Positions 49,757 through 62,164 of a stretch of DNA of 64,000 bases are shown here, one piece after another (positions within the stretch are counted from its first letter, which is position 1; each line of letters starts with the position of its first letter). Under the pieces are notes generated by a model. The model saw nothing but the letters and a program-made list of their open reading frames with translations. It made no database searches and was not told the origin of the DNA. Origin of the DNA: Gammaproteobacteria bacterium (lineage in GTDB: Bacteria; Pseudomonadota; Gammaproteobacteria; Tenderiales; Tenderiaceae); NCBI GenBank assembly GCA_016200485.1, contig JACQEP010000014.1, positions 124,001 to 188,000 of the forward strand, in the 5' to 3' direction. Made by a program: the position numbers and the translations under genes.

Positions 49757-50584
49757 ATGATGCGATCGCAACGAACCCTTAATCTACGCCTGGCCTTGCT
49801 GGCAATGGCTTGGCTTTGCGGCCCCCTCCACGCCGAAGATGAAATCAGCGGCGCCGAGACCAATGCCAGTCACGACACTGGCGCTCAACAGAACCCTTCT
49901 TACCGGGCAAAACTCATGTCGCAACTGGTGCCTGATCGCATCTCTGCCGGAGAAAATGTTGTTGCTATTGTGCAGTACCAAAATAAAAGTGGCACACCGT
50001 GGACGTCTAATGGTGATTATTACCTGGCTCCGATCAGTGGCGAACCTTGGCTAACACGAATCGACCTGCCCCAAGGCAAAACCATTACCGCCGGTGAAAC
50101 TGTCACCTTTCGTATTACTATGACCGCGCCCTTGCATCCGGGCGAATACCCACTGCAATGGCAAATGCATCAAGGCAAAACCAGTTTCGGCGAACCCACG
50201 TCTTCCGTCCGACTTAAAGTAGTCCAACCTCTACAACCTTGGGACGACGCCGAGTTTGTCTATCAGGATGTCCCCCAAAAGATGAACGCCAATCGCGATT
50301 ACAATGTCGTATTACAATTTAAAAATACAGGAAAAACCAGTTGGACCAAGAGTCAGTATGCATTGGCAACCACTGAGGCCAGTGACGACCTTACCTGGAC
50401 CATCAGCCGTATCGAACTTCCTGGCAACACCCTACTCAGGCCGGGTGGGTTTCAGACATTTCGCTTCACAGTGAGAGCCCCCGCCACTCCCGGCCAATAC
50501 CCGTTTCAGTGGCAATTACTCCATCTACCCACCAATCGCTTCGGTGCAGGCAGCGATAAGCTGAATATCGACGTTATCCCTTAG
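49757..50584 (+). CDS. Secreted protein with two NBR1-like FW/Ig-type domains
   Basis: The 275-residue protein has a signal peptide (LRLALLAMAWLCGPLHA) and two tandem beta-sandwich domains, at about residues 50-155 and 160-275. Each shows a pattern of QYQNKSGTPW or QFKNTGKTSWT, then a RIDLP/RIELP strand and HPGEYPLQWQM / TPGQYPFQWQL. The aromatic pattern resembles FW (four-tryptophan) domains of the NBR1 type found in some bacterial surface proteins. Function is unknown. Its stop overlaps the convergent nikO stop by 11 bases. Confidence 0.75.
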   Translation: MMRSQRTLNLRLALLAMAWLCGPLHAEDEISGAETNASHDTGAQQNPSYRAKLMSQLVPDRISAGENVVAIVQYQNKSGTPWTSNGDYYLAPISGEPWLTRIDLPQGKTITAGETVTFRITMTAPLHPGEYPLQWQMHQGKTSFGEPTSSVRLKVVQPLQPWDDAEFVYQDVPQKMNANRDYNVVLQFKNTGKTSWTKSQYALATTEASDDLTWTISRIELPGNTLLRPGGFQTFRFTVRAPATPGQYPFQWQLLHLPTNRFGAGSDKLNIDVIP

Positions 50585-51698
50585 GGTTATTTTGATTCTC
50601 TGACACATGTGGATGACCACGGTCATCCACATGGACATGAAAATGTTCGCCGTCATGACTATGGTCATCGCCGTGATCATGTGAATGATCGTGAGGGTGT
50701 GGATGAGGATGCACATGTGGCCGTGACAATAAGGAGCCAGCGGTAGCCGGTCCCTTAACCGCATCTATACGCAACAATTCATGAATATGCGTATCTTTGA
50801 CATCATCATGCAAATGAGTATGTCCATGAGGATGAAAATGGATATGGACATGATCATGATCACCCGGCCCATGGGCATGACGATGCGCATGCAGGAAACT
50901 GGCGATAATCCGTTTATGCTCCGCATCCATCTGCCCACTACTGAGCTTTTCATGCAACAACTCATGCGTCATCAGCGCCAGCGGCAACTCAAGATGATTC
51001 GTCTCCAGCAACTCGCGGTCATAGAGGATGTTTGATGCTGGGCCATCGGCGACAAACTGGCCTCCAGAAAGCACAAGACAACGATCGCACACGTCCAACG
51101 CAATATCCAGATCGTGCGTGCAAAGCAACATCGTCTTATTCGACTTCTTCAACCAGTCAATCAGCCTGCGACGATTAAGCGGGTCCATATTCGTTGATGG
51201 TTCATCGAAAACCAAAATATCCGGCTGATATGAAAGCACGGTTGCCAGCGCCAGACGCTTGCGCTCACCAAACGACAAATGGAACGATGAGCGCTGTTCA
51301 AACCCTTTCAGCCCGACTGTCTCCAGCGCTTCATCGACGCGATGCTGAATTTCATCGCGCGGCAGACCAAGATTCAGAGGACCGAAGGCAACATCATCAA
51401 ATACCGTCGGACAAAACAATTGATCATCCGGATCTTGAAAGACTATGCCAACCTTGCGGCGGATTTCCTTCAGATTGTCCTTGCGCACTTCAAGACCACT
51501 GACCATTACCTTGCCAGAAGTTGCCAACGAGACACCATTCAATAAACTCATGAAGGTTGATTTGCCGGCGCCATTCGGCCCGATCAACGCAACTTTTTCG
51601 CCTTTGCGAATTGTACAATTGGCGCCTTTGAGCACTTCACGTCCGTCAGGATAAGTGAAGTGAACGTTTTCTACTTGAATCGCATTATCGGCCGCCAT
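50574..51698 (-). CDS. nikO: ECF nickel/cobalt transporter ATPase with His-rich tail
   Basis: NikO drives import by the energy-coupling-factor transporter NikMQO. The 374-residue protein has an ABC ATPase domain: GPNGAGKSTF (Walker A), LSFGERKRLALA (signature) and ILVFDEPSTNMD (Walker B). The last 110 residues hold more than 30 His in HxH runs (HVHPHPHPHDHSHDHGDDHS), a likely metal store. ATG 51698 is chosen because GGAGG is nine bases upstream, whereas it abuts ATG 51707. nikQ ends 15 bases before it. The tail and NikR in the locus favour nickel over cobalt. Confidence 0.93.
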   Translation of the reverse strand: MAADNAIQVENVHFTYPDGREVLKGANCTIRKGEKVALIGPNGAGKSTFMSLLNGVSLATSGKVMVSGLEVRKDNLKEIRRKVGIVFQDPDDQLFCPTVFDDVAFGPLNLGLPRDEIQHRVDEALETVGLKGFEQRSSFHLSFGERKRLALATVLSYQPDILVFDEPSTNMDPLNRRRLIDWLKKSNKTMLLCTHDLDIALDVCDRCLVLSGGQFVADGPASNILYDRELLETNHLELPLALMTHELLHEKLSSGQMDAEHKRIIASFLHAHRHAHGPGDHDHVHIHFHPHGHTHLHDDVKDTHIHELLRIDAVKGPATAGSLLSRPHVHPHPHPHDHSHDHGDDHSHDGEHFHVHVDDRGHPHVSENQNNPKG

Positions 51699-51713
51699 GA
51701 TCTGCATCCTCCG

Positions 51714-54996: not shown

Positions 54997-55124
54997 ATGG
55001 CTATATGACTGAATTGTAACGTAGCATTTATATTGGTTTAAGTTCAAAACCCTGTGCCGACAACCCAAATATTGCAACAACAAACTCTTATATTCCATCA
55101 AAAGTGTTAGGGGAGTTAAAATTA

Positions 55125-56171
55125 ATGAAAAGCAGAAATCTTATCCGCAGTTCTGTCACGCTCATCGCCTGCTCAATGGCAGCTTCCACCGCTTACGCCA
55201 AGGGCGGCATCGACACTGAATACGCTGATATCCACATCACCGGCGGAGCCGCTGGTGGTTACTATGCCTCGAACCGCGAAGTCACGCGCCAAAACGATCA
55301 AAACCGGCTGTCGGACTTTTTGCTTGGCATACACGCCATCACCAAGGAAGAACAAGTCGAGCTGAGCGGTGGCATCGGTATCCTGCCGTCATATTCCTTG
55401 CTTGATGACGGAGTCGATACTGCCGGAAATACGACAGCGCTTCAGTATGCGACCATCGCCGTACATCCAGTGGAGAATTTGACCCTCGAAATGGGCCGCA
55501 TCTCGTCCAATGTCGGCTACGAAAACACCCAATCCTTCCTCAATGCCCATTCCATTGGTTCAGTACAATCAGTAGCACAACCAGGTTACTTCCCAGGTAC
55601 ACGTTTGACCTATGGCAACGATGCCCTTTCAGCGTACGTTGAGCAAAGTGACGACACTTATACCGCGCCGAGTGCCGCATCCACAGGCCATGCCTGGGCC
55701 GCGGGCGCCATGGGCGAAGTGAGTGGCATCAGTTATGTCGTCGGCTACCAAAACTACTCTGGTCTCAGAACGCTCACTGACGTGATTTTAAGCGGCAAGA
55801 TCATGGACATGGATGTGACATTCGCATATGACCGCATTAGCCTCACCGAAGCCGCGTTAGCAGCACCCACTGACAAAGATCATGCCGAAAGTATTGCCCT
55901 TTATTTCTCAGGCCCAACCTTCGACAAGGTTGCCATCCCGTTTAGATTGGAACGCTTTGACGATCACGGTAATGGCATCTACGGCAACGCTAATGGCGCT
56001 GGCGGCAAAGGGCATTCGATCACAATCACTCCGACCTGGAATTTCACGGAGAATGCCTATATCCGCACCGATTTCTCCTACCTGAAGTTTGAAAACAAAA
56101 TACTGACCGACGTTAACGGCTTGGAGGATAACCGCTTCATGTTCGTGCTGCAGGTGGGTTATAAGCTATAA
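55125..56171 (+). CDS. Outer-membrane beta-barrel protein (porin-like), probably linked to nickel uptake
   Basis: The 348-residue protein has a signal peptide (TLIACSMAASTAYA) and an alternating pattern of strands to the C-terminus, which ends FVLQVGYKL. A hydrophobic last residue of this kind is not the classical Phe but suits outer-membrane insertion. I place it with porin-2/OmpL-like barrels; a close match is not recognised. ATG 55125 is chosen because GGGGAG lies ten bases upstream. It diverges from nikK across the NikR-type operator and ends at a terminator shared with nikR. Passage of nickel chelates is an inference from location. Confidence 0.75.
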   Translation: MKSRNLIRSSVTLIACSMAASTAYAKGGIDTEYADIHITGGAAGGYYASNREVTRQNDQNRLSDFLLGIHAITKEEQVELSGGIGILPSYSLLDDGVDTAGNTTALQYATIAVHPVENLTLEMGRISSNVGYENTQSFLNAHSIGSVQSVAQPGYFPGTRLTYGNDALSAYVEQSDDTYTAPSAASTGHAWAAGAMGEVSGISYVVGYQNYSGLRTLTDVILSGKIMDMDVTFAYDRISLTEAALAAPTDKDHAESIALYFSGPTFDKVAIPFRLERFDDHGNGIYGNANGAGGKGHSITITPTWNFTENAYIRTDFSYLKFENKILTDVNGLEDNRFMFVLQVGYKL

Positions 56172-56240: not shown

Positions 56241-56708
56241 CTATTTATGGTGATGCGGATGAGGATGTTCATGATCATGCTGTTCCTGCTTTGAGGGCAA
56301 TGATTGACCTGTCGTCGTCATCGTCAACTTACCATGTTTAACACCACGTATCGCCACCAGTTGATCGGCGAACGTCCGCAGCACCTGCCCCTTGCCCTGC
56401 ACCACCAACACCTCCAGGCAGTTATGATGATCCAGATGAATATGCAACACCGATTTAATATCGCCAGGAAACGAATGTTGCAAATGCGTCAAATTGGCCG
56501 ATAAGTCACGCGTGTGGTGGTCATAAACAATCGTAATCGTACCGACTGTCTCTTCATCAGCCGCCCACTCCTCTTCTACCATGTGATCGCGGATCAGATC
56601 GCGAATCGCCTCGGATCGGCTGGCATAGCCTTTTTTCTCGATCTGTTTATCAAATCGTTGTAGCAGATCTTCCTCAATCGAAACCCCGAATCGCACCAAC
56701 TCGCTCAT
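56241..56708 (-). CDS. nikR: Nickel-responsive regulator NikR
   Basis: NikR is a ribbon-helix-helix repressor that binds DNA when its ACT-like domain holds nickel. The 155-residue protein has the RHH domain ([20 protein letters not shown]) and the metal domain with H78, H89, H91 and C97 in LQHSF and HIHLDHHNC. These match E. coli H76, H87, H89 and C95. The C-terminus adds a His-rich tail ([12 protein letters not shown]) not needed for the core fold. It is convergent with the barrel gene. Its predicted sites are at 53213 and 54871. Confidence 0.96.
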
Positions 56709-56815: not shown

Positions 56816-56831
56816 AAATAGTTAACTATTT
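56816..56831. promoter_or_regulatory. AT-rich palindrome upstream of nikR and the small membrane ORF
   Basis: AAATAGTT followed by AACTATTT is a perfect 16-base palindrome in the divergent gap. It could be an operator for either nikR or the small membrane peptide. It does not resemble the NikR site. Confidence 0.45.
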
Positions 56832-56924
56832 CGAAAATTTGGTGTATGTTTATTTTGCATTTCCCAGTGAAATGCTCAGTAATGACTAGGCCATTGATAA
56901 CAAACGAAAATTGGGGAGAACCTT

Positions 56925-57038
56925 ATGTCAAATAATACACGTCGTAAATCTGCCGCTGATACCGACCTGATGATTCTGATCCCGTTGGCGTGCATTATCT
57001 CAGTCGTCGCTTTTGTTGCTGCATCCATGTTCCACTAA
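56925..57038 (+). CDS. 37-residue single-pass membrane peptide
   Basis: The peptide reads MSNNTRRKSAADTDLMILIP and then LACIISVVAFVAASMFH. It has a short basic N-terminus and one hydrophobic helix (about residues 16-34). GGGGAG lies nine bases before the ATG, and a strong terminator follows the stop by 22 bases, so it has its own transcription unit. The positive-inside rule places the N-terminus in the cytosol. I do not recognise a family. Small one-helix subunits of respiratory complexes or stress peptides are possible parallels. Confidence 0.75.
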   Translation: MSNNTRRKSAADTDLMILIPLACIISVVAFVAASMFH

Positions 57039-57060
57039 GCCGTAGCGGTCCCACAGCGAG

Positions 57061-57094
57061 AGCCCTTGCGATTCTGGTCGTAAGGGCTTTTTTA
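57061..57094 (+). terminator. Rho-independent terminator of the small membrane ORF
   Basis: AGCCCTT pairs with AAGGGCT across a 14-base loop and is followed by a run of six T. It separates the small ORF from sohB. Confidence 0.9.
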
Positions 57095-57153: not shown

Positions 57154-58146
57154 GTGACCGAATTTTTCACTGATTACGGGCTTTTTTTAGCCAAGACCAT
57201 CACCCTCATTGCCACAATTCTGGCCACTGTATTCGTCATCGTTGCCGTGACCGGGCGCAGCCGGGAAGAAGGCCGTGAAAAACTCGAGATCAAAAAACTC
57301 AACGATAAATATCGTCAGATGGCACATCTGTTACACACCCGCATTCTGCCGAAGACAGACCTCAAGAAATATTTGCACCAGGAAAAGAAAATCGAAAAGA
57401 AGCTCGCCAAAGACACTACACCTCGACGCCGAATATTTGTCTTGAACTTCGATGGCGACATCCGCGCCTCGGCTGTCACCTCGCTGCGTGAAGAAATCAC
57501 GGCAATACTAATGATCGCCACGCCTAACGATGAAGTCGTGGTCCGCATTCATAGCGGCGGTGGTATGGTGCATGCGTATGGGCTTGCCGCTTCACAATTA
57601 ATGCGCATCAAGCAACACAACATTCCGTTGACCGTGGCCATCGACAAAATCGCCGCCAGCGGCGGTTATTTGATGGCCTGCGTCGCCAACCACATCATTG
57701 CCGCGCCATTCGCAATTGTCGGTTCCATTGGCGTTATCGCGCAGGTCCCGAATTTTCATCGCCTGCTCAAAAAACATGACATCGATTTCGAACAAATTAC
57801 CGCCGGTGAATACAAACGAACACTCACTATATTTGGCGAAAATACAGATAAAGGCCGCGCCAAATTCAAGGAAGAAATCGAAGACACTCATTCCCTGTTT
57901 AAAGAATTTATCCGCGAACATCGGCCCCAGGTGGATGTCGAATTGGTGGGTTCCGGTGAACACTGGCCCGCAAAGCGCGGGATGCAACTCAAACTGGTGG
58001 ATGAACTCATGGCCAGTGACGACTATCTGATGAGCAAACGCGAAAACGCCGATTTGTTTGAGATAACCTACCGCCAGCGACTCCCCTTGGCGGCCCGGCT
58101 GGGACACTTTATCCAAGGTAACGTAGATAAGTTATTGAATTCCTGA
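57154..58146 (+). CDS. sohB: Inner-membrane S49 family protease SohB
   Basis: The 330-residue protease has an N-terminal membrane helix (about residues 8-30), a SohB N-terminal domain and an S49 peptidase domain. The catalytic Ser is in IAASGGYLMACVA and the Lys in AGEYKRTLT. IHSGGGMVHAYG forms the oxyanion region. The start codon is GTG. SohB is the short relative of signal-peptide peptidase SppA and sits beside the membrane. Its substrate is not known. Confidence 0.94.
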   Translation: MTEFFTDYGLFLAKTITLIATILATVFVIVAVTGRSREEGREKLEIKKLNDKYRQMAHLLHTRILPKTDLKKYLHQEKKIEKKLAKDTTPRRRIFVLNFDGDIRASAVTSLREEITAILMIATPNDEVVVRIHSGGGMVHAYGLAASQLMRIKQHNIPLTVAIDKIAASGGYLMACVANHIIAAPFAIVGSIGVIAQVPNFHRLLKKHDIDFEQITAGEYKRTLTIFGENTDKGRAKFKEEIEDTHSLFKEFIREHRPQVDVELVGSGEHWPAKRGMQLKLVDELMASDDYLMSKRENADLFEITYRQRLPLAARLGHFIQGNVDKLLNS

Positions 58147-61579: not shown

Positions 61580-62164
61580 TTACTTTTTTCCTGTATCCCA
61601 CCAAGCTGCCGGCGAACCCTCATGCGGCACGCTATGGCAGCGTTCACACACTAAAAGGCTAAATGACACCTTGTCGTGACAACGACCACAATATTCGCCC
61701 TTGAGGATTTTCTCCATTGAGATCGGATTGGCATTGTATTGGGGGATAAATATTTCCGGATGACAGTTGCTACAGGCCAACCATTGCGTATGCGCAAGAT
61801 GCGGGAAGCGAACATGGGGCATATTGGCCGTATTCTTGCGAATAATGTCCATATCCATTTCCATCATTTGATCGCTACCTTTACCATTGAGACTGACGCG
61901 CGGTGTGATCTTGCCGCTACGAATCGCCTTCACCCAATCCACCTGGCCGCGACGATCCAAGGGAAAATCAACCATTGCCTCTCCCGGTTCCTGCAATATG
62001 CGAATAGCATCATTCTCAGGATCGTGGATACCATCCTCCGCCAGAGGCTTGGTTTTGTAGATATCAGCCGCCCCCCCTGCCATAGGCAAGGCGAGACACA
62101 GTATCGATACCAGGGTCAAAAATACATTTCGTACGATCAGCCCCTTTGGAAAAAACTTGTGCAT
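61580..62164 (-). CDS. Three-haem periplasmic c-type cytochrome
   Basis: The 194-residue protein has a signal peptide (NVFLTLVSILCLALPMAGGA) and three CxxCH haem sites: CSNCH, CGRCH and CERCH in the C-terminal third. HVRFPHLAHTQWLA supplies two extra His as possible sixth ligands, as in the c7/c3-type family. The N-terminal 80 residues before the haem region are not of a known fold. It would carry electrons in the periplasm. Its partner is not visible; the gene is monocistronic between convergent and divergent neighbours. Confidence 0.88.
   Translation of the reverse strand: MHKFFPKGLIVRNVFLTLVSILCLALPMAGGAADIYKTKPLAEDGIHDPENDAIRILQEPGEAMVDFPLDRRGQVDWVKAIRSGKITPRVSLNGKGSDQMMEMDMDIIRKNTANMPHVRFPHLAHTQWLACSNCHPEIFIPQYNANPISMEKILKGEYCGRCHDKVSFSLLVCERCHSVPHEGSPAAWWDTGKK

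What the first reader, a model, noticed from the sequence alone, without database searches (positions are those of the whole stretch)
56925..57038. 37-residue membrane peptide with its own terminator
A one-helix peptide has a strong ribosome-binding site, an AT-rich palindrome upstream and a good terminator, so it is very probably expressed. It is too short for most annotation pipelines and I know no family for it.
Basis: seen in the sequence. Interest (0 to 1): 0.55.

Follow-up and report, generated by a model that had tools for sequence, protein, structure and literature searches.

The report
New family of one-helix membrane microproteins
A 37-residue membrane peptide missed by annotation libraries is a real, conserved gene and belongs to an unnamed family of tiny one-helix proteins that occur in several copies per genome in some Gammaproteobacteria.

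Summary
ORF 56925-57038 encodes a 37-aa one-helix protein with a good RBS and a strong terminator (57060-57093). The frame is conserved: five other species of its family (three genera) carry it beside sohB, under purifying selection; a sixth has a decayed remnant. The 16-bp AT palindrome is the -35 region of a conserved promoter and is fully palindromic only here. A conserved inverted repeat lies at the expected transcript start.

I extracted 73 distinct proteins of 31-41 aa, each with an Asp at the start of its one hydrophobic helix and a stop 21-25 residues later. Genomes carry one to five copies at unrelated loci. No convincing Pfam, NCBIfam or PDB relative was found. The family occurs in a few gammaproteobacterial families and is nearly absent elsewhere.

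Most likely it is an inner-membrane accessory peptide (cytoplasmic N-terminus) that packs against a larger membrane protein through a conserved helix face. The partner is unknown; that step is inference.

The parts
56925..57038 (+). 37-aa one-helix membrane protein (sub-family A); helix about residues 10-36, Asp14 at the start of the hydrophobic stretch
   Evidence: purifying selection; helix; family motif
56913..56918 (+). Shine-Dalgarno GGGGAG
   Evidence: an SD-like motif was found for all 65 extracted members by a script that also uses SD to choose the start
56822..56850 (+). likely promoter TTAACT-17-TATGTT; exact TTAACT in 5 of 6 orthologous loci, TTAACA in the sixth
   Evidence: not listed by the consensus scan
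56816..56831 (.). perfect AT palindrome AAATAGTTAACTATTT; overlaps the -35 region; palindromy not conserved
56857..56875 (+). inverted repeat GCATTTC-CCAGT-GAAATGC at the expected transcript start: 5' mRNA hairpin or operator; counterpart in 4 of 5 relatives compared, with changed but complementary arms
57060..57093 (+). intrinsic terminator; a strong terminator also follows 5 of 5 intact orthologues
56241..56708 (-). nikR, divergent upstream neighbour
57154..58146 (+). sohB, S49 protease, downstream neighbour beyond the terminator

Best explanation
The ORF is a genuine stand-alone gene for an inner-membrane microprotein. Its short positively charged N-terminus stays in the cytoplasm, one helix crosses the membrane, and almost nothing protrudes. 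It belongs to an unnamed, multi-copy family of such proteins. It most likely acts as an accessory peptide: the conserved face of the helix (about positions +3/+4, +7, +10, +14, +17/+18, +21 from the Asp) packs against a larger membrane protein, or against itself, and stabilises or tunes it. Different copies would serve different partners or conditions. Shown by sequence: coding, conservation, transcription-unit signals, family, near-constant helix length. Inferred: expression, topology, partner binding. Unknown: the partner.
For: Orthologues in the same setting; dN 0.14-0.37 against dS 0.91 to saturation in 15 pairs; conserved promoter and 5' inverted repeat; terminator at 6 of 6 sub-A loci and at 44 of 64 members against 3 of 128 shuffles at -12 kcal/mol. 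Family: 73 of 73 distinct proteins stop 21-25 residues after the Asp and carry at least one K/R before it, while 12 of 73 carry K/R in the C half, which fits N-in. Conservation along the helix peaks at 100 degrees per residue, P = 0.006 against shuffled positions. Copies at unrelated loci, mostly with own terminators, argue for a role not tied to one operon.
Against: No partner is indicated by gene neighbourhood; neighbours differ between sub-families. The periodicity test ignores relatedness of the sequences. Members were collected with profiles built from earlier members, so the motif is partly selected for; the Asp is the anchor of the alignment and its 73 of 73 is by construction. The gene is dispensable: one relative keeps only a remnant and four of 11 genomes lack it. 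Codon bias towards ribosomal-protein codons is weak: P 0.03, 0.27 and 0.03 for the three copies of this genome.
Confidence: 0.5

Rival explanations
1. A structural subunit of one respiratory or energy-transducing complex, like CydX, CydH or CcoM, made from a separate gene.
For: Size and single helix are alike; CydX is described as 37 aa (abstract in listing; passages) and CcoM as a 36-aa subunit of the cbb3 oxidase (abstract passage).
Against: No cytochrome bd subunit I in this genome (control positive in 10 of 14 named genomes). No PDB chain of such a subunit matches the family profile up to E = 10. Several copies per genome fit a single complex poorly.
Confidence: 0.15
2. [quoted passage not shown]
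For: Short hydrophobic peptide, apparently monocistronic, multi-copy, structured 5' leader; type I toxins of E. coli are mostly 18-51 aa (passage).
Against: Good RBS and clear purifying selection; no Rfam family in the window; no match in plasmids, phages or viral contigs. An antisense RNA cannot be excluded by sequence alone.
Confidence: 0.12
3. A small homo-oligomeric channel or pore.
For: Small residues at +6 and +18 and a conserved helix face.
Against: Within the membrane stretch of this member only Cys23 and Ser26 are polar before the last few residues; no direct evidence for oligomers.
Confidence: 0.1
4. A leader peptide or attenuator for sohB: translation of the ORF controls the terminator in front of the protease gene.
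For: The terminator lies between the ORF and sohB; same order in relatives.
Against: Selection is on the amino-acid sequence of the helix, and members of the other sub-families are not upstream of sohB.
Confidence: 0.04

Closest known systems
CydX / CydH and CcoM (one-helix subunits of terminal oxidases)
   Same: About 30-40 aa, one membrane helix, easily overlooked by annotation
   Different: Those belong to one complex; CydX is encoded mainly in cydAB operons (passages). Here: several dispersed copies, no cytochrome bd in the genome, no sequence match
Regulatory one-helix microproteins such as MgrB, AcrZ, KdpF (recalled, from no call)
   Same: Single-helix inner-membrane peptides that bind a larger membrane protein
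   Different: No sequence match in Pfam or NCBIfam; partner unknown; multi-copy with an Asp-started helix of near-constant length
Type I toxins (Hok, TisB, Ibs) and TimP
   Same: Short hydrophobic membrane peptides from short mRNAs
   Different: Strong conservation across genera, no antisense partner seen, no match in mobile-element collections

Membership tests
Any curated protein family (Pfam-A, NCBIfam) | match above the curated cut-off | tested here: not met
   Only isolated single-member hits at E 0.02-0.08 among 19 members and among 47 members; the window peptide itself has none
CydX / CydH | cytochrome bd oxidase in the genome | tested here: not met
   PF01654 absent from this genome, control positive in 10 of 14 named genomes
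CcoM (cbb3 oxidase) | sequence similarity to the CcoM chain | tested here: inconclusive
   No such chain among PDB matches up to E = 10; the CcoM paper is not held; that CcoM is in the PDB is recalled
Type I toxin | antisense RNA antitoxin | not testable with these tools
   Rfam: 0 matches in the window; a new antisense RNA would be missed
Type I toxin | toxic when overexpressed | not testable with these tools
   needs an experiment
Phage or mobile-element peptide | relatives in phages, plasmids or viral contigs | tested here: not met
   No match for the window peptide or its orthologue alignment; PHROGs: five families with one member each, best E 0.005
The family described here | 31-41 aa, K/R before an Asp at the start of one hydrophobic helix, stop 21-25 residues after it | tested here: met

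The most novel reading that the evidence does not exclude
The copies are interchangeable one-helix subunits: each is switched on by its own promoter and swaps into the same membrane machine, changing its behaviour, so that some Gammaproteobacteria carry a small repertoire of plug-in membrane peptides. A bolder version: the Asp-started helix mimics the ion-carrying helix of MotB/ExbD-type proteins and caps MotA/ExbB-type proton channels (in L124 a MotA/ExbB-family gene lies 0.3 kb downstream of a family member).
Probability: 0.08. Interest if true: 0.8.

Novelty: new variant of a known kind. Interest (0 to 1): 0.5.

Why it matters
It turns one unannotated 37-codon ORF into a definable protein family with a motif, conserved neighbourhoods and a profile that can be searched, so that expression, partner and phenotype can be tested directly. 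It also shows that annotation can miss whole multi-copy families of membrane microproteins.

Tried and rejected
Rejected or without result: CydX/CydH (no cytochrome bd); sohB leader peptide; phage or plasmid origin; Rfam leader elements; tRNA genes in the window or at three loci with tandem pairs. The promoter scan was no better than shuffles. Looking by eye for a conserved NikR-type operator in the alignment gave nothing clear. The codon-usage test was weak; its reference set included three ORFs on the opposite strand of the ribosomal contig that are probably spurious, so it should carry little weight. The leave-one-cluster-out motif test put 70 of 73 sequences in one cluster and is circular because members were found by profile; I do not use it.

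Rows dropped: hits in long frames were taken as chance: 9 of 23 matching genomes have only long-frame hits (169-367 codons), 2 of 15, 3 of the 4 matching genomes other than the own one, and the fourth (36-codon frame) was read and shows no start or SD of the family type. The 65 loci plus nine proteins give the 73 distinct proteins; the G004 remnant and two later members were left out of the counts. One of the 65 (L184) had too little downstream sequence for the terminator test.

I read passages only of PMC10433244, PMC7667032 and PMC4325964. This covers only the held open-access library.

Full report
What is there. The ORF at 56925-57038 reads MSNNTRRKSAADTDLMILIPLACIISVVAFVAASMFH. A Shine-Dalgarno GGGGAG (56913-56918) precedes it, and an intrinsic terminator of -20.3 kcal/mol lies at 57060-57093, before sohB at 57154. 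AlphaFold2 predicts one helix over residues 10-36, mean pLDDT 84.3. The upstream gene is nikR on the other strand; nickel/cobalt-transport genes lie beyond it.

Is the frame conserved? A tblastn of 56 genomes (own included) found intact orthologues in G006, G003, G005, G010 and G001 at 62-69% identity, and a weaker match in G004. Four of the five show the nikR / peptide / sohB / iscR order; in G010 the contig starts just before the peptide, so nikR is not seen. G004 has the place but only a remnant without a start codon, whose frame runs on past the usual stop. Of the other four genomes of the taxonomic family, G007, G008 and G009 (drafts, 77-88% complete) show no nikR at all, and G002 has nikR beside a different gene without the peptide. 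So 6 of 11 genomes keep it, own included. Among the six intact genes 15 pairs give dN 0.14-0.37 and dS from 0.91 to saturation, with codon-position differences 171/87/288 over 543 codon pairs.

Control signals. The alignment of the upstream regions shows TTAACT-17-TATGTT-like promoters, with exact TTAACT in five of six loci. In G005 the promoter (TTAACA) and the inverted repeat sit further up, separated from the RBS by an inserted stretch of about 300 bases; a relative of it (80% over 297 bases) lies in the window's own genome on contig C4 (L030:10908-11202). Just after the -10 lies an inverted repeat with a 5-base loop whose arms change together: GCATTTC/GAAATGC here, CATTCC/GGAATG in G006, G005 and G010, TATTCC/GGAATA in G001; G003 lacks that form. 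Whether it works as a 5' mRNA stabiliser or as an operator cannot be told, since both keep complementarity.

A family. Profiles grown step by step (alignments A1, A3, A4, A5) were run on genomes. With A1, 12 of 369 class-level genomes matched at E <= 0.01, the best outside the own family at 5.6e-6 and 1.1e-5 per genome. With A4, 23 of 369 matched at E <= 0.02, 9 of them only in long frames. Within taxonomic families: 10 of 11 genomes of the own family at E <= 0.05, 6 of 6 of f82, 15 of 20 of f72, of which 13 in short frames, and 2 of 3 of f37. Phylum-wide, 5 of 398 genomes matched, own included, and none of the other four is convincing. I read out 65 members with start and SD and nine more: 73 distinct proteins of 31-41 aa. 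All have 8-17 residues before the Asp and 21-25 after it. The stop codon is not part of the profile search, so the near-constant length is independent support. Consensus, clusters weighted equally: [KR]-x-A-S-x-D-D-x-x-I-V-x-G-L-A-x-I-x-x-x-L-x-x-[LV]-[AG]-x-x-[LM]. A terminator at or below -12 kcal/mol follows 44 of 64 members against 3 of 128 mononucleotide shuffles; members without one are mostly in f82 and f72 and include this genome's own C4 copy. Closer pairs in f72 and f82 also show low pN against pS.

Sub-families have settled places of their own: A between nikR and sohB; B mostly between a substrate-binding-protein gene behind a TonB-receptor gene and trmO, with fabA further on; C upstream of an M61 peptidase gene; D convergent with a SAM-methyltransferase gene; in f72 a tandem pair near birA. 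This genome holds A (C14), a B-like copy (C4) and C (C9). No common pathway emerges.

How it probably works. All 73 carry K or R before the Asp and only 12 carry one in the C half, which by the positive-inside rule (established knowledge) suggests a cytoplasmic N-terminus. Conserved positions recur with helical period (100 degrees, P = 0.006), as expected of a helix that packs on one face. I therefore favour an accessory peptide that binds a larger membrane protein. This is inference.

Compared with the known. There is no convincing Pfam, NCBIfam or PDB relative; PHROGs gave only single weak matches. CydX and CydH are excluded for this genome by the absence of cytochrome bd. The toxin reading is not excluded but unsupported. 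As far as these libraries and four paper searches show, the family is unnamed.

Noticed in passing
50574-51707 (-) and 56241-56708 (-): The nickel/cobalt-transport ATPase has a long His-rich C-terminal tail, and NikR a His-rich end ([12 protein letters not shown]): possible metal-binding extensions.
   Followed up: no
55104-56171 (+): A BBP2-type porin gene beside the nickel genes and nikR; relatives have a gene of like size at the same place without a BLASTP match to it. Possibly an outer-membrane nickel porin.
   Followed up: partly
L004 / L022 upstream of the peptide; L030:10908-11202: A dispersed repeat of about 300 bases, 80% alike between two genomes, inserted between promoter and RBS of the G005 copy.
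   Followed up: partly
L124, L125, L135: A gene whose first helix looks MotB/ExbD-like by eye lies 0.7-1.4 kb from family members in two taxonomic families; in L124 a MotA/ExbB-family gene lies between. May be coincidence.
   Followed up: partly
L129, L133, L134: Tandem pairs of family members about 0.6-1.7 kb apart in family f72, near birA where read.
   Followed up: partly
61580-62164 (-): Cytochrome c7-like multihaem protein, conserved near the isc region in relatives.
   Followed up: no
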